From: Salinivirgaceae bacterium
GTDB lineage: Bacteria > Bacteroidota > Bacteroidia > Bacteroidales > SZUA-534
Assembly: GCA_017645945.1 (NCBI GenBank)
Contig: JAGCNL010000016.1
Coordinates: forward strand, 1 to 64,000
DNA length: 64,000 nucleotides
Direction: 5' to 3'
This document shows, in pieces, positions 30,299-49,118 of this stretch. The first letter of the stretch is position 1. Each line of letters begins with the position of its first letter. The notes under the pieces were generated by a model. It saw only the letters and a list, made by a program, of their open reading frames with translations. It ran no database searches and had not been told where the DNA came from. Made by a program: the position numbers and the translations under genes.

Positions 30299-30326
30299 GT
30301 ATAAACGCGTCATGGCACGTCTATAC
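30299..30326. repeat. Palindromic element, diverged copy
   Basis: GTATAAACGCG (30299-30309) and CACGTCTATAC (30316-30326) are inverted arms with 9 of 11 positions paired around a 6-base centre. Length (28), outer GTA/TAC ends and the ACG/CGT inner arms match the elements at 33738 and 49091. It lies in the leader of the first BspA-like gene. Confidence 0.5.
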
Positions 30327-30370: not shown

Positions 30371-33300
30371 ATGAAACGCATTGTCACACTGTTTTTTGCC
30401 GCAATGCTTGCAGGGCAGGCTATAGCCGAAGACAAATTTGATTTTTCAGCCGTTTGTAGCACAGGGCAAACCTTGTACTACAAAATAAAAAATGATACTG
30501 TTCAACCTTACACAGTGCAAATAACGTATCCGTCAGACCCTGGGGCTACAAATGATCATTATATAGGTCATATCAAACCAAATGGGGATTTGAACATACC
30601 AGAGTTAATCACTAACGAAGGAATAAACTATTCAATAACAAGCATTGGCGAAAGAGCATTCTTTGACTGCGACGAACTAACGTCTGTAACTATTCCGAAA
30701 TCTGTCACGAGCATTGGTACGCAAGCATTCCTTGGTTGTGTTAAGTTGTTGGCAATAAACGTTGCGGATGATAATCAAATTTACACATCAATAGATGGTG
30801 TGCTCTTTAATAAAGATAAAACTAAACTGATATGCTTCTCCTACGGAAAAACTGGTTCATATACCATACCAAATACCGTAAAAACCATACAACCTTGGGC
30901 GTTCGAAAATTGTGGTTTGGAATCAATAACCATTCCAAACTCTGTCACAAACATCGGTAAATCTGCATTTTGTAAATGCGTCAATTTAACTTCAATAAAC
31001 TTTCCCACTTCCGTTAAATCCATTTATGAATATACATTTTATGGATGTAGTAAATTAACAATCACAATTCCCGAAGGAGTTACAAGTATTGCTGATAACG
31101 CATTTAACCTGGTGAAAAACGTAAATTACACGGGCAGTGCCAGTGGAAAACCTTGGAGAGCCCTAACGGTTAATGGCACTATTGATGGAGACTTTATATA
31201 TGCTGATGCTGAAAAGACGCGACTTACAGCATACAAAGGAGAAGGAGGAGATGTAACCATCCCAAATTCTGTGACAAGCATCGGGAATTATGTATTCATG
31301 AATTGTTTAAACCTGTCAGCAATTAATATTCCAAATTCTGTGACAAGCATCGGGAATTATGTATTCATGAATTGTTTAAACCTGTCAGCAATTAATATTC
31401 CAAATTCTGTAACAAGCATTGGAACTTATGCGTTCGAGAATTGCTATCGAGTATCAATAACCATCCCGAGTACGGTTACGAGCATCGGCGATTATGCGTT
31501 CTGGAACGTAAAAAACATAAATTATTCTGGTGAAGCAACTGGTAGTCCATGGGGGGCTATCAACATTAATGCAGTAACAGGAGAGAATGGGTTCTTATTT
31601 AAAGATGCGGAAAGAACTCAAATTGCCGCATACATTGGTGAAAATAGCGAAATAACTATTCCTGATTCCATAACAAGTATTGGCACGAACGCATTTTCAC
31701 ATTGTACAAGACTTACTTCAATTGTAATTCCTAATTCTGTTACAAGCATCGGCTCGTCAGCATTTTATGGGTGCACAGAACTTACTTCGGTTATAATCCC
31801 TAATTCAGTTAAATCTATTAATTTATCCACCTTTGGCGGTTGCAGCAAACTCATAGTTGCCATTCCTAACTCAGTCAAATCTATTATAGATAATTCATTC
31901 GAAAATTGCCATTCGGTTATCGTTTCTAACTCTGAAATTGGTCTGTATGCATTTAGAGGGGTTGACAAAGTGTTTTATTTAGGTACATCCGCAGGCATGA
32001 ATTCTGGATGGAATAGGTATGTCAAATCGTTATCAAACTATAGTAGTGAATTGTGTTTCGAAGTAGATAGGAACAATCCTAACGAGGCAATAATTACTAA
32101 ATATGAAGGCACAGACGATGTGGTTGTAATTCCGCCAACAGCAACTATCGACAATAAAAAATACACTGTAACATCAATTAGCGAGAGCGCCTTCAGCAGT
32201 TGCTGGGAACTGAAAGCGGTTTACCTGCCAAACACCATTACAAGTGTCGCTCCGTCGTCGTTCTCTGGCTGCTACAAATTGCAGTACAACACTTTCGACA
32301 ACGCCCTTTATGTTGGCTCTCAAGACAATCCTTATTATGCACTCATCAAAGCCCAAGACAAAAACATAACCTCGTGCCAGATACACAGCGATTGTAAGGT
32401 AATTGCAAGTTTTGCGTTTGAAAACTGCGAGGCTCTGACCAGCATAACAATTCCCGATTCGGTAACGCATATAGGCCGTATGGCATTCAGCAATTGTTCG
32501 GCGATTGAGAATGCTGTTGTGGGCAAATCGATTGTCGAGATAGGGAATTGGGCTTTCGAAAATTGCCAAAAACTCAAAACCGTATCCATACCAACAAGTA
32601 TCAAGAGTATAGGTTACGGGGTGTTCTACGGTTGCGACAAACTGCAATATAACACCTTCGATAATGCTCTCTATCTGGGCAACGACGTTAACAAGTACGT
32701 TGTGCTGATGATGCCGAAAGCAGATGACATCCAGCAATGTATGATAAGCGATAGTTGCCAAATAATCTACGAAAGCGCTTTTCTCAATTGCGCATCGCTC
32801 GATTCGGTATCAATTCCAAATTCTGTTTGGAGCATCGGAAGCAATGCATTCAGCAACACTGCTTTGCGCTCGGTTGTGCTTCCTGATTCGCTCCGAACAA
32901 TTGAAGCGGGACTGTTTAACGAGTGCACAAAACTCACATCGGTTACTATCCCAAATTCAGTAACAACAATTGGCATCAATGCTTTTTATTGGTGCGAGAA
33001 CCTAAAAACGGTTGCTCTGCCCAATGGGCTCACGCAGATAGGCGGCAGCGCCTTCAACTATTGTCTTGGTTTGGATTCCATACTGATACCAATGTCTGTC
33101 GATTCGATAGGAAATGCTGCATTCTTCCGCTGCAACAAGGCCACAATATATTGCGAGGCCGACAGCAAGCCTGCCCACTGGGATGAAGATTGGAATAAAA
33201 ATGGAGGAACGGTGGTATTGAAATACTGTGGAAATGGCAATAATGCCCATACTTCAGTTACAGATGCTGCCGTTGCCGCAACCTGCACAGAGTCAGGCTT

Positions 33301-33844
33301 AACCGAAGGCTCGCATTGCTCGGTTTGCGGTGTAGTCTTAGTTGAGCAAGACACAATTCCAGCCAAAGGCCATACCATTGTTATTGACGAAGCGGTTGAG
33401 CCAACCTGTACCGAGACTGGGTTGGGAGAGGGCAAGCATTGCGCCGTCTGCGACGAATACGATTGGACACAAGAACTACTGCCGCCATTGGGCCACGAGT
33501 TTGTAAACTACGTTTATAACAACGACGCCACCACCGAAGCCGATGGCACCGAGACTGCTGTCTGCGAGCGCGGCTGTGGCGCAACTGATACACGCACTGC
33601 TGAAGGCACACGATTGTCAACATCCGTTTCAGAATCCGCTGCAAACAATTTGATGGTTTACGCCCACGGCAACACCATCATTGTTGAAAACGCCGCAGAA
33701 GAAATCAGCGTATATGATGCAATGGGTCGCCTTATTGGTAGGGACGCGATTAATCGCGTCCGTACAGAAATCCGCGTCAACACCGCAGGTCTTTACTTTG
33801 TGAAGGTTGGCAATGTGGCGAAACGTGTGATGGTGAATGATTGA
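30371..33844 (+). CDS. BspA-like leucine-rich-repeat surface protein with T9SS sorting tail
   Basis: The 1157-residue protein has a signal peptide (IVTLFFAAMLAGQAIAE). Residues ~75-940 are LRR_5/BspA-type repeats of 23 residues with the core ITIPNSVTSIGxxAFxxC, interrupted by spacer modules beginning LQYNTFDNALY. Residues ~955-1080 hold Cys-rich repeats (C-T-E-x-G-L...H-C-x-V-C, then CERGCGATDT). The last ~75 residues are a type A T9SS domain (NTIIVENAAEEISVYDAMGR ... GLYFVKVGNVAKRVMV). BspA proteins bind host proteins or other bacteria; the target here is unknown. Odd points are an exact 69-bp duplication at 31262-31399 and a palindromic element translated inside the tail (33738-33765). Confidence 0.93.
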   Translation: MKRIVTLFFAAMLAGQAIAEDKFDFSAVCSTGQTLYYKIKNDTVQPYTVQITYPSDPGATNDHYIGHIKPNGDLNIPELITNEGINYSITSIGERAFFDCDELTSVTIPKSVTSIGTQAFLGCVKLLAINVADDNQIYTSIDGVLFNKDKTKLICFSYGKTGSYTIPNTVKTIQPWAFENCGLESITIPNSVTNIGKSAFCKCVNLTSINFPTSVKSIYEYTFYGCSKLTITIPEGVTSIADNAFNLVKNVNYTGSASGKPWRALTVNGTIDGDFIYADAEKTRLTAYKGEGGDVTIPNSVTSIGNYVFMNCLNLSAINIPNSVTSIGNYVFMNCLNLSAINIPNSVTSIGTYAFENCYRVSITIPSTVTSIGDYAFWNVKNINYSGEATGSPWGAININAVTGENGFLFKDAERTQIAAYIGENSEITIPDSITSIGTNAFSHCTRLTSIVIPNSVTSIGSSAFYGCTELTSVIIPNSVKSINLSTFGGCSKLIVAIPNSVKSIIDNSFENCHSVIVSNSEIGLYAFRGVDKVFYLGTSAGMNSGWNRYVKSLSNYSSELCFEVDRNNPNEAIITKYEGTDDVVVIPPTATIDNKKYTVTSISESAFSSCWELKAVYLPNTITSVAPSSFSGCYKLQYNTFDNALYVGSQDNPYYALIKAQDKNITSCQIHSDCKVIASFAFENCEALTSITIPDSVTHIGRMAFSNCSAIENAVVGKSIVEIGNWAFENCQKLKTVSIPTSIKSIGYGVFYGCDKLQYNTFDNALYLGNDVNKYVVLMMPKADDIQQCMISDSCQIIYESAFLNCASLDSVSIPNSVWSIGSNAFSNTALRSVVLPDSLRTIEAGLFNECTKLTSVTIPNSVTTIGINAFYWCENLKTVALPNGLTQIGGSAFNYCLGLDSILIPMSVDSIGNAAFFRCNKATIYCEADSKPAHWDEDWNKNGGTVVLKYCGNGNNAHTSVTDAAVAATCTESGLTEGSHCSVCGVVLVEQDTIPAKGHTIVIDEAVEPTCTETGLGEGKHCAVCDEYDWTQELLPPLGHEFVNYVYNNDATTEADGTETAVCERGCGATDTRTAEGTRLSTSVSESAANNLMVYAHGNTIIVENAAEEISVYDAMGRLIGRDAINRVRTEIRVNTAGLYFVKVGNVAKRVMVND
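31262..31399 (+). repeat. Exact 69-bp tandem duplication (one LRR unit, two copies)
   Basis: 31262-31330 and 31331-31399 are identical base for base and encode two copies of the same 23-residue LRR, containing NSVTSIGNYVFMNCLNLSA. Neighbouring repeats share the motif but differ at many bases, so this duplication is recent. Confidence 0.95.
33738..33765. repeat. Palindromic element inside the BspA-like coding sequence
   Basis: This 28-bp inverted repeat has arms GTAGGGACGCGATT and AATCGCGTCCGTAC with one mismatch. It is read in frame as part of the sorting domain, giving GRDAINRVRT between AMGRLI and the EIRVNTAGLYFV strand. The homologous position in the second BspA-like protein lacks it. 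The same element, with one change in each arm, lies downstream of the second gene at 49091. Confidence 0.85.
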
Positions 33845-45952: not shown

Positions 45953-46309
45953 CTTGCTCTGCGTTTTGTCTCGCAAGAGGTTGAATGTTGAGTGACATAT
46001 TAGAAAGACGTTTACTGACGTTTTCCTTTGACACTTCGAAATCTCGCAAATTTTGAATCATCGTCAAAGAAAAAGCAGCGGTGAACGCCTGCGTAGGTAT
46101 GCGGTGTATTGTCATAGGCGTTAGTGAATGGCATCCCCATATCAACGTGGGTATTCGCGTTGCTCAATCTTACGATGATGGGCAATGCGAGAGCCTCGAA
46201 GTGTGGGAGCGAGTAACAAGATTCCCACGTTTTTCTGTTTATATAGGTACCGCAATCGGGGAGTCGGCGGACAGAGGTTGCGCACGACACGGAGGCAGTG
46301 TATATGGTT
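45953..46309 (+). other. Long putative 5' leader with alternative hairpins
   Basis: This is the largest gene-free stretch in the window (with its flanks, 45818-46309). It is richer in G+C than other spacers. AACGTGGG (46144-46151) can pair with CCCACGTT (46224-46231), while GTGGGA (46203-46208) pairs with TCCCAC (46223-46228), followed by GTTTTT. The two pairings share a strand and exclude each other, as in attenuators. Smaller hairpins CCT-GCGT-AGG (near 46089) and CGAG-AGC-CTCG (near 46190) also occur. Open frames exist on both strands here but lack signal sequences, codon character or family resemblance, so I treat the region as noncoding. Confidence 0.45.
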
Positions 46310-49063
46310 ATGAAAAAGTTATTATTAATTCTTGCTACGATGCTTGCTGGACAGGCGTGGGCTTGGGATTTTGAATGTGATGGTTTGAGATACTCAATTA
46401 ATACACCTTCTGATGGAGAAAACCATATTGTTTCAGTAGCCAAAGGTTTAACTTCCCCAACAGGAGACTTTGTAATTCCGTCTGAAGTTACTTACCCTGA
46501 AACTGATGGTGTAACTTATTCAGTAACCAGCATCGGGGACCGTGCGTTTTCTGAATGTAGAGGTTTGACAACGATAACTATTCCTGAATCAATAACCAGT
46601 ATCGGCAATGCAGCATTCGTCAATTGTCACGATTTGACATTGGTAATCATTCCCAATTCTGTAACTTGCATCGGTAGTCAAGCGTTCCAAAATTGTAACA
46701 ATCTGACTTCGGTAACCATTCCAGAATCAGTAATCAGCATTGGCGAGTACGCATTCATGGGGTGTGATAACTTAACTAAAGCTGAATTCGTCAACATTGC
46801 GAGTTTGTGCAAAATGCAATTTGACGGTGTCTATGCTAATCCTGTATTGTGTACTCACCATTTATTTGTTGATGGTAAGGAAATAACAGATGTTGTTATT
46901 CCTGATTCAATAACGAGTATTGGTAACTATTCATTCTGTGGTTGCAACGATCTGGCATCGGTATCCATTCCGGAATCTGTAACCAGCATCGGTGACTATG
47001 CGTTCTCTGATTGCAGAGGTCTAACATCGGTAAATATTCCCGAAACAATAAAGAGTATTGGCAACTATGCGTTCTCTGGTTGTAGTAGCTTGATATCGAT
47101 AACTATTCCTAGAGCAATAACTTGCATTAGAGATGGTACGTTCTCAGGTTGCTGTGACCTAACATCAGCAACAATTCCAGAATCAGTAACCAGCATTGGC
47201 GAGTATGCGTTCCGAGATTGCAGCAGCTTGGCATTAATAACCATTCCAGAATCAGTAATAGAATTGAGTGGCTACGCATTTTCTGGTTGTAGCAGTTTGC
47301 AATACAACGAATATGATAATGCACTTTATTTGGGAAATGATGGAAATCCTTATTTGCTACTGATCAAGGCTAAATCAACAGATATTACATCGTGCGTGAT
47401 AAGCAACAGTTGCAAGTTTTTTAACTCTACCGCGTTCAACAATTGTAGCCACCTAACTTCTGTTACTATTAGTAATTCAGAGACAGAAATAATAGGATGG
47501 GATGCGTTCGCTGGTTGTAGCAGTTTGCAGTACAACGAATACAACAATGCACTTTATTTGGGAAATGATGAAAATCCTCATTTGATGCTGATAAAAGCCA
47601 AATCGACAGATATAACATCGTGCGAAATAAGTAACAGTTGCAAACTCGTTTACAAACTGGCATTCTGTTATTGCAGCAGTTTGACATCTATAACCATTCC
47701 TAATTCGGTAACCAGTATTGGCGATATGGCTTTCTATGAATGTAGAGGTCTGACTTCAGTAACTATTGGTAATTCCGTAACCAAGATAGGCAAGGAAGCA
47801 TTCAATTTTTGCAGCGGCCTGACATCGATATCCATTCCTGAATCAGTAACCTGGATTGGCGACTATGCGTTCTATAATTGCAGAAGCTTGCCAACAATAA
47901 CTATACCTAATTCTGTAAAGAACATTGGAGTGCATATGTTTGGAAATTGTTACAGTTTGACGTCTATAACACTACATGATTCACTAATCAGTATTAGTGA
48001 TGGAGCTTTCATGTTTTGCCGTAGTCTGACTTCAGTTTCCATTCCTGAATCTGTAGTCAGCATTGGTACGGGTGCGTTTGCATGGTGTGATGTTTTAAAA
48101 AAAGCGGAATTCGCCAACATTGCGAGTTTGTGTAAAATACACTTTGGCGACAGAAGTGCCAATCCTTTGTTTTCTGCTCACCACTTATATGTTGATGGTG
48201 AGGAAATCACAAAGGTCTTTATTCCCGATTCAGTAACGAGTATTGGCGATTATGCATTCTCTGATTGCAGCGGTCTTACATCAGTGTCCATTCCAAATTC
48301 TGTAACGAGCATTGGGGAAGAAGCTTTTTATGGTTGCAGCGCTTTGACATCAGTAACCATACCAAATTCAGTAACATATATTGGTAATGCGTTTGGAGAA
48401 TGTGAACAATTATATTGTGAAGCAGAAAGCAAGCCAAATACTTGGAAAAAAGATTGGAATTACGACAACAGACCTGTTGTATGGGGCTGTAAGTCAATAA
48501 AAATAGAGATCAATGACTTGGAATTAGGAAGTGTGCAAACCAATCCTGTTTGTGGAATTGGTATCAACGGAACCTTATGGTATACAGAGGGGGCAACAGT
48601 AGAACTCACAGCAACACCCAAAAAGGGATATCATGTAAAATGGGAAAATGGCAGTTATGAAAATAATCGTACAATAACTGTTGCTGAAGGTTCTGTTTAT
48701 TCTGCAACATTTGAGAAACATACATTTTCGAACTACATCTATAACAATGATGCCACCACCGAAGCCGATGGTACAGAAACCGCTGTTTGTGAGCGCGGCT
48801 GCGGCGCAAATGACACACGAGTAAAAGAAGGAACAAAACTGCCAAAGGACAACACAGCTGTTAACGAATCTGCCGTTAACGCCATTAACATTTACGCTAT
48901 CGGAAGCACCATTGTCGTTGAGAACGCCACCGAAGAAATCTTTGTTTACAATGCAATGGGTGCTTTGGTCGGCCGCACGGAAACAACGACAATAACCGTC
49001 AACGGCGCAGGCGTTTACATTGTAAAAACTAGCGGCACAGTTAAACGTGTTATGGTGAATTAA
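46310..49063 (+). CDS. BspA-like leucine-rich-repeat surface protein with T9SS sorting tail (second copy)
   Basis: The 917-residue protein has a signal peptide (KLLLILATMLAGQAWA, near-identical in style to the first BspA-like protein). LRR_5 repeats with VTIPNSVTSIGxxAFxxC fill residues ~60-700, interrupted by spacers starting LQYNEYDNALYLGND and by two copies of a module with HHL(F/Y)VDG(K/E)EIT. An InlB/Listeria-Bacteroides-like repeat (ATVELTATPKKGYHVKWENG) follows, then the Cys module CERGCGANDT shared with the first protein, and a type A T9SS tail (NATEEIFVYNAMGALVGRTE ... GVYIVKTSGTVKRVMVN). It is probably a surface adhesin; the ligand is unknown. ATG at 46310 is preferred over 46298. 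Confidence 0.92.
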   Translation: MKKLLLILATMLAGQAWAWDFECDGLRYSINTPSDGENHIVSVAKGLTSPTGDFVIPSEVTYPETDGVTYSVTSIGDRAFSECRGLTTITIPESITSIGNAAFVNCHDLTLVIIPNSVTCIGSQAFQNCNNLTSVTIPESVISIGEYAFMGCDNLTKAEFVNIASLCKMQFDGVYANPVLCTHHLFVDGKEITDVVIPDSITSIGNYSFCGCNDLASVSIPESVTSIGDYAFSDCRGLTSVNIPETIKSIGNYAFSGCSSLISITIPRAITCIRDGTFSGCCDLTSATIPESVTSIGEYAFRDCSSLALITIPESVIELSGYAFSGCSSLQYNEYDNALYLGNDGNPYLLLIKAKSTDITSCVISNSCKFFNSTAFNNCSHLTSVTISNSETEIIGWDAFAGCSSLQYNEYNNALYLGNDENPHLMLIKAKSTDITSCEISNSCKLVYKLAFCYCSSLTSITIPNSVTSIGDMAFYECRGLTSVTIGNSVTKIGKEAFNFCSGLTSISIPESVTWIGDYAFYNCRSLPTITIPNSVKNIGVHMFGNCYSLTSITLHDSLISISDGAFMFCRSLTSVSIPESVVSIGTGAFAWCDVLKKAEFANIASLCKIHFGDRSANPLFSAHHLYVDGEEITKVFIPDSVTSIGDYAFSDCSGLTSVSIPNSVTSIGEEAFYGCSALTSVTIPNSVTYIGNAFGECEQLYCEAESKPNTWKKDWNYDNRPVVWGCKSIKIEINDLELGSVQTNPVCGIGINGTLWYTEGATVELTATPKKGYHVKWENGSYENNRTITVAEGSVYSATFEKHTFSNYIYNNDATTEADGTETAVCERGCGANDTRVKEGTKLPKDNTAVNESAVNAINIYAIGSTIVVENATEEIFVYNAMGALVGRTETTTITVNGAGVYIVKTSGTVKRVMVN
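47285..47645 (+). repeat. Diverged direct repeat within the second BspA-like gene
   Basis: About 130 bases from 47285 recur from 47513 (offset 228, 76 codons) with scattered differences. Each unit encodes CSSLQYNEYxNALYLGND, then LIKAKSTDITSC and SNSCK. The encoded module is a non-LRR spacer also present twice, more diverged, in the first BspA-like protein. Confidence 0.8.
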
Positions 49064-49090: not shown

Positions 49091-49118
49091 GTAGGGATGC
49101 GATTAATCGCGTCCCTAC
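49091..49118. repeat. Palindromic element downstream of the second BspA-like gene
   Basis: The arms GTAGGGATGCGATT and AATCGCGTCCCTAC form a 28-bp inverted repeat with a single G-T pair. It lies 28 bases after the BspA stop and matches the element translated at 33738-33765 with one difference in each arm. There is no long T-run after it, so it is a poor intrinsic terminator. Confidence 0.85.

What the first reader, a model, noticed from the sequence alone, without database searches (positions are those of the whole stretch)
33738..33765. Palindromic element translated inside a type IX sorting domain
A 28-bp inverted repeat also found in intergenic DNA at 49091 sits in frame in the C-terminal sorting domain of the first BspA-like protein, adding about ten residues (GRDAINRVRT) between AMGRLI and the next strand. 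The paralogue lacks it at the same place. It seems a mobile or spreading palindrome landed in a coding region and was tolerated because it encodes an open, polar loop.
Basis: seen in the sequence. Interest (0 to 1): 0.65.

Follow-up and report, generated by a model that had tools for sequence, protein, structure and literature searches.

The report
Mobile DNA palindromes inside secretion tags
A short repeated DNA palindrome, of a kind that normally sits between genes, lies inside the export tag of a surface protein and is translated as a hairpin tip; in this rumen Bacteroidales genus about half or more of the tags checked carry one of several different palindromes at the same spot.

Summary
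33738-33765 is a near-perfect palindrome, in frame in the type IX (T9SS) sorting domain of the BspA-like protein at 30371-33844, and a near-identical copy lies at 49091-49118. It is a GTAG-footed REP element of the kind tied to subclass 2.4 REP transposases (RAYT/TnpAREP). In relatives, those transposase genes are flanked by such REPs and also contain them in frame. The same sorting-domain loop holds REPs of at least eight core types: 15 of 29 domains in this genome, 14 of 16 in a relative searched with a REP-less query. The REP residues form the tip of a predicted beta-hairpin. The '49091 intergenic copy' is itself in a second recurrent slot, 26-28 nt after the stop codon of sorting-domain genes. 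Corrections: the canonical element here is about 27 nt (nine codons); net gain over the paralogue is 4 residues, not 10. In-frame REPs, including inside RAYT genes, are published; the reuse of one T9SS hairpin by different REP families was not found in the literature searched. Mobility and any function are inferred, not shown.

The parts
33738..33765 (+). GTAG-footed REP (core GCGATTAATCGC; canonical extent about 33738-33764, 27 nt), read in frame as R1124-DAINRVR-T1132 in the sorting-domain hairpin
30371..33844 (+). BspA-like leucine-rich-repeat surface protein, 1157 aa, with C-terminal T9SS type A sorting domain (host of the REP)
   Evidence: LRR_5; TIGR04183 24.9 bits, cut-off 23, domain scanned alone
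33650..33841 (+). T9SS sorting domain, one of about 39 related stretches in the genome
   Evidence: predicted fold matches RgpB C-terminal domain and a T9SS translocon entry
49091..49118 (+). double-foot REP with the same core, 27 nt after the stop codon of the paralogue: a recurrent 3' slot of sorting-domain genes
46298..49063 (+). paralogous BspA-like protein (921 aa) whose sorting-domain loop (GRTETTTITV) holds no REP
48887..49060 (+). sorting domain of the paralogue
30299..30326 (-). decayed REP-like palindrome GTATAGACGTGCCATGACGCGTTTATAC upstream of the host gene (weak, 3 departures; chance expectation 0.45 per 64 kb per strand)

Best explanation
The 28-bp palindrome is a REP (GTAG-tagged repetitive extragenic palindrome) that entered the gene as DNA and is now translated. 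REPs of this kind belong to subclass 2.4 REP transposases (TnpAREP/RAYT, HuH single-strand nucleases), which relatives in the genus carry and whose genes have these same palindromes at their borders and in frame inside them. The sorting-domain loop accepts REPs because (i) the common single-foot REP is 27 nt, exactly nine codons; (ii) two of its three frames are free of stops (GTAG gives TAG only in the third), and the palindrome reads much the same from either strand; (iii) the loop is the exposed tip of a beta-hairpin in the domain that directs export by the T9SS, and a polar RDxxNRVRT turn fits there. Over time different REP families entered or replaced one another at this spot in many paralogues, and duplication of the domain with its 3' end spread the filled versions. 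Shown here: REP identity, frame, recurrence, variety of cores, DNA-level relatedness, the transposase link in relatives, the predicted hairpin tip. Inferred: that the transposase does the moving, that the inserts are neutral rather than useful, and that replacement uses short homology (REP tail CCGYAC against CCGCAC in REP-less loops).
For: Palindrome with GTAG foot, 2-13 near copies in each of the 11 genus genomes and none in 9 other genomes of the family. Own-genome pattern search with free core: 71 forward matches against 12 for the reversed-pattern control; 75 sites placed in fetched loci, 14 of about 55 well-matched ones in sorting-domain loops that make up about 0.03% of the genome. Loop REPs in 15/29 own domains and 14/16 in G008 with a REP-less query. 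At least eight core types in the same slot. The CACATTGTG type is read in a different 5' frame (IVETPHCDVSTEI) yet rejoins the same 3' frame (L220, L233). Core type needs at least 39-44 changes on a tree of the flanks (minimum 7). L054 and L252 share 90 identical upstream bases but have unrelated loops. Codon test. RAYT genes with flanking and internal REPs, matching the published subclass 2.4 (PMC6006769). AlphaFold2 model, mean pLDDT 87.6, strands 41-45 and 49-55 with the REP residues at the turn.
Against: This genome itself shows no subclass 2.4 RAYT (98% complete draft), so its copies may be relics or served by a lost gene. No true empty/filled pair at one orthologous locus was available. 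REPs with the same core do cluster on the tree (nearest flank neighbour shares the core in 39 of 85 against 13 expected), so part of the spread is plain duplication. The tree rests on 168 nt with few supported branches.
Confidence: 0.8

Rival explanations
1. One ancient REP insertion in one sorting domain, then spread only by domain duplication and gene conversion; the different cores arose by mutation inside the insert.
For: Same-core domains cluster more than by chance; domain plus 3' end is clearly duplicated as a block.
Against: The cores match separate REP families that also occur outside sorting domains and in RAYT genes. Mutation of one insert would have to keep pairing through many intermediates. 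The 29-nt type has a different 5' frame. Near-identical flanks carry unrelated loops.
Confidence: 0.12
2. The palindrome is kept for its nucleic-acid structure (mRNA hairpin near the 3' end, or protein binding site), and the peptide is incidental.
For: A second REP sits 26-28 nt after the stop in most of the 9 of 29 own domain genes that have one within 110 nt; G008 also has 9 of 16, some weak or at other offsets. REPs near gene ends are often transcribed (PMC3733652).
Against: Older inserts lose pairing yet keep the frame: L012, L015, L017, L027, L039. None of the 105 domains compared has lost the frame, though the search required an open frame. About half of the own-genome domains have no loop REP.
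Confidence: 0.12
3. Coincidence: RDAINRV is an ordinary conserved peptide of these sorting domains that happens to be encoded by a palindrome.
For: REP-less loops of similar length also have R..RTEI (ERVAAEAGRTEI, SRVAANADRTEI).
Against: Identical 24-27 nt also occurs in intergenic DNA, and the same REP type inside RAYT genes; codon identity far above flanks; no match in shuffles.
Confidence: 0.02
4. The sorting-domain loop is a preferred target of the transposase (sequence- or structure-specific insertion), not merely a permissive place.
For: Strong concentration (14 of about 55 sites); a second fixed slot just after the stop; REP tail CCGYA(C) resembles CCGCAC present in 11 of 20 REP-less loops (shuffles 0.24).
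Against: CCGCAC codes the shared R-T residues and may be common ancestry; bases before GTAG outside sorting domains show only a preference for T or C at -1.
Confidence: 0.25

Closest known systems
GTAG REP superfamily and its intragenic members (Di Nocera et al. 2013, PMC3733652)
   Same: 20-40 bp palindromes tagged by GTAG; some lie in frame in genes; different REPs at about the same site in recB of two Xanthomonas species are reported there.
   Different: That paper did not list GTAG REPs for Bacteroidetes, and many of its tagged genes serve DNA synthesis and repair; here one domain loop is hit in dozens of paralogues by at least eight REP types.
TnpAREP/RAYT subclass 2.4 system (Quentin et al. 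2018, PMC6006769)
   Same: Long and 'double-foot' REPs with GTAG...CTAC; REPs flank the tnpAREP gene and sit in frame inside it between HuH and Tyr motifs; present in Bacteroidetes. Relatives of this genome match all of this.
   Different: Sorting-domain insertions do not come up in the passages read. This genome keeps the REPs but no such RAYT was found.
Rickettsia palindromic elements (RPE; summarised in PMC3733652)
   Same: Palindromic elements translated in frame in host proteins and tolerated there.
   Different: The elements here are 27-29 nt, shorter than RPE-1, and concentrate in one loop of one export domain.
PARCEL palindromic amphipathic repeat coding elements (PMC2996958)
   Same: Palindromic DNA coding part of surface repeat proteins (a PARCEL model even hits the paralogue).
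   Different: PARCELs are 25-residue tandem repeat units; the REP here is a single hairpin tip in the sorting domain, not in the repeat.

Membership tests
GTAG REP | 20-40 nt (near-)perfect palindrome with GTAG at one foot | tested here: met
GTAG REP | many dispersed copies, mainly intergenic | tested here: met
   about 55-75 sites over all core types, most outside genes; only 5 copies within 3 mismatches of this core in this genome
TnpAREP subclass 2.4 REP system | REPs flank the tnpAREP gene and lie in frame inside it between HuH and Tyr motifs | tested here: met
   in genus relatives, (e.g. L098/L130 with core GCGATTCATCGC; L104, L111); published definition
TnpAREP subclass 2.4 REP system | motifs NH(hydrophobic)H, WQ, YIxNN(P) | tested here: met
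   alignment A1, (MPNHxH, WQ, YIExN; P replaced by V in some)
TnpAREP subclass 2.4 REP system | cognate transposase gene in the same genome | tested here: not met
   no match at E <= 1e-5 in G000; matches in 9 of 11 genus genomes (weak ones in G001)
TnpAREP subclass 2.4 REP system | transposase moves or cuts these REPs | not testable with these tools
   needs biochemistry
T9SS type A sorting domain | TIGR04183 above cut-off | tested here: met
   24.9 bits against 23 when the domain is scanned alone; 30 of 30 domains match; the whole protein stays below the cut-off (19.2)
T9SS type A sorting domain | fold of the RgpB C-terminal domain | tested here: met
   Foldseek best hits are T9SS translocon chain 8gl8_D, RgpB CTD 7pq4 and 5ag8, with 5hfs also high; E-values 2e-3 to 2e-2, small domain
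T9SS type A sorting domain | T9SS translocon encoded in the genome | tested here: met
   SprA TIGR04189, 2431 bits
Rickettsia palindromic element (RPE) | sequence relation to RPE families | not tested
   no RPE sequences compared; kinship not claimed

The most novel reading that the evidence does not exclude
The sorting-domain hairpin tip is a standing docking slot: the genus uses interchangeable REP families as exchangeable coding cassettes (with a partner slot just after the stop codon), so that a transposase-linked DNA repeat system repeatedly rewrites a surface-exposed part of T9SS export tags, perhaps helping tags to be copied between genes or to vary.
Probability: 0.15. Interest if true: 0.8.

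Novelty: new variant of a known kind. Interest (0 to 1): 0.6.

Why it matters
REP elements are defined as extragenic, and how they spread is still open. A domain family in which dozens of paralogues carry different REPs at one codon position, next to REP-less versions, is a natural record of REP insertion and replacement with readable junctions. It also shows how a DNA palindrome can become protein without evident harm (nine codons, few stops, hairpin tip), and suggests that the T9SS sorting domain tolerates a rewritten hairpin, which bears on what the translocon reads.

Tried and rejected
(1) Recombination breakpoints at the REP: distances left and right of the loop correlate (0.29) about as well as halves within one side (0.33), so no sign that REPs are crossover points. 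(2) Orthologous empty site: not available, because the host gene is present at this locus only in G000 and G002, and the orthologous matches to the region around 49091 begin beyond the REP. (3) IS200-like TnpA genes (PF01797) as the mover: the own-genome copy and its like (L060-L073) have no such REPs around them and resemble subclass 1.2, which is not tied to REPs (PMC6006769). (4) A first aligner run on flanks was repeated without gaps because free end gaps could inflate identities. (6) Literature: the three papers holding both 'type IX secretion' and 'repetitive extragenic palindrome' are unrelated by title and abstract.

Full report
What is in the sequence. At 33738-33765 the window reads GTAGGGACGCGATTAATCGCGTCCGTAC, and at 49091-49118 GTAGGGATGCGATTAATCGCGTCCCTAC. 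They differ at 2 of 28 bases and no shuffle of the window gave a match. The first copy lies in frame in a 1157-aa BspA-like leucine-rich-repeat protein (30371-33844) and encodes RDAINRVRT near the C-terminus. The second lies 27 nt after the stop codon of the paralogue 46298-49063, whose own loop is GALVGRTETTTITV. The net difference between the two loops is 4 residues, not ten; cleaner cases elsewhere in the genome show a 30-nt, ten-residue insertion (L032/L038 against L036).

The domain. Scanned alone, the C-terminal 77 residues pass the cut-off of TIGR04183 (T9SS type A sorting domain, 24.9 against 23 bits), and all 30 sorting domains sampled match it. The genome encodes SprA, the T9SS translocon. 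An AlphaFold2 model (mean pLDDT 87.6) has strands at 41-45 and 49-55 of the domain, and the REP-encoded residues (44-52) form the tip of the hairpin between them. The best fold matches are T9SS sorting domains (RgpB and others).

What the palindrome is. It has the GTAG foot, size and spread of a REP. Each of the 11 genomes of the genus has 2-13 copies within 3 mismatches, 9 other genomes of the family have none, and a few in the order have related ones. With a free core, the pattern gives 71 forward matches in this genome against 12 for the reversed control. REPs elsewhere show two forms: a single-foot form GTAG-GGACG...CGTCC-GYA of 27 nt, and a double-foot form GTAG-AGACG...CGTCT-CTAC of 28-29 nt. 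These fit the two REP types published for TnpAREP subclass 2.4, whose genes also carry REPs in frame between the HuH and Tyr motifs (PMC6006769). Relatives have such RAYT genes with REPs at their borders and inside, for example L098/L130 with core GCGATTCATCGC, L104 with CCATGG, L105 and L111 with CACATTGTG. RAYTs from other families of the order hold the GCGATTAATCGC REP in frame too (L043, L057). The window's own genome shows no such RAYT.

The slot recurs. In this genome 39 stretches resemble the sorting domain. Of 29 read in full, 15 have a recognisable REP in the same loop, with cores ATTAAT, ATTCAT, GGCGTGCC, AACGCCTT, CCATGG, GGCGCGCC and CACATTGTG types. In a relative (G008), searched with a REP-less domain so as not to favour REPs, 14 of 16 have one. 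Across 105 different domains at least eight core types occupy the same place. Nearly all use the frame x-R-D-xxxx-V-[RS]-T; the 29-nt CACATTGTG type enters in another frame (IVETPHCDVSTEI) but leaves in the same one (L220, L233). About a quarter of the well-matched REP sites placed in this genome (14 of about 55, counted by hand) are in these loops, which make up about 0.03% of it. A second slot lies just after the stop codon (26-28 nt in most), filled in 9 of 29 own domain genes, again by different cores, and window 49091 is one of them.

DNA insertion, not peptide conservation. Among own-genome domains found by protein similarity, codons for the same residue are identical in 50 of 50 comparisons inside the REP and in 178 of 249 in the flanks; over 87 domains the values are 0.94 and 0.72 (pairs are not independent). 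Domains L054 and L252 share 90 identical upstream bases but have unrelated loops. On a tree of the flanks the core type needs at least 39-44 changes (minimum 7), though same-core domains do cluster (39 of 85 nearest neighbours against 13 expected). Both repeated entry or replacement and plain duplication therefore took part. REP-less loops often contain CCGCAC (11 of 20, shuffles 0.24), close to the REP tail CCGYA(C), which may have helped replacement at this point; common ancestry could also explain it.

How it most likely works. REPs are thought to disperse with their transposases, though the route is unproven even in models (PMC8266576). Most insertions in genes should be lost; a 27-nt element with two stop-free frames entering a hairpin tip should be harmless. 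The sorting domain is present in dozens of genes and is duplicated with its 3' end, so filled loops accumulate and spread. Old inserts lose pairing and keep the frame (L012, L015, L017, L027, L039), which speaks against selection on the palindrome itself. Targeting by the transposase, or a use for the variation, is not excluded.

Limits. The genomes are drafts in many contigs, and the named relatives are metagenome-assembled and titled Salinivirgaceae bacteria, mostly from ruminants. The set of 105 domains is partly biased towards the ATTAAT core because some loci came from pattern searches; the G008 set is not, and the 29-domain own set came from a protein query that itself holds the REP peptide. 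No orthologous empty site was found, since the host gene is absent at this locus in nine of eleven genomes. No function has been tested.

Noticed in passing
L277 (G000:C77:141108 and 141154): Two REPs (GGCGTGCC-like cores) lie in frame in a 732-aa ORF that looks like a restriction-modification DNA methylase (...CENVGTSRAASENSIVANNADAARHVPT...), each palindrome read in a different frame.
   Followed up: partly
L076 (G000:C4:29202-29431): Cluster of six REPs with different cores within about 230 bp.
   Followed up: no
window 30371-33844 and flanks: The whole host BspA-like gene is present at this locus only in G000 and G002; nine other genus genomes match only from about 33944 on.
   Followed up: partly
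window 31259-31396: Two adjacent 69-bp leucine-rich-repeat units are 99% identical, a very recent tandem duplication inside the same BspA-like gene.
   Followed up: no
window 30299-30326: Decayed CCATGG-type REP-like palindrome in the region upstream of the host gene.
   Followed up: no
L066 (G000:C58:3399-3740) and L060-L073: Single-copy IS200-like TnpA genes ending in YIxNQxxHH, like the poorly known TnpAY1 subclass 1.2, one or two per genome across the genus and without REPs around them.
   Followed up: partly
L042, L043, L057 (other families of the order): RAYT genes of other Bacteroidales carry the GCGATTAATCGC REP in frame at different places (after the HuH motif, or near the N-terminus).
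   Followed up: partly
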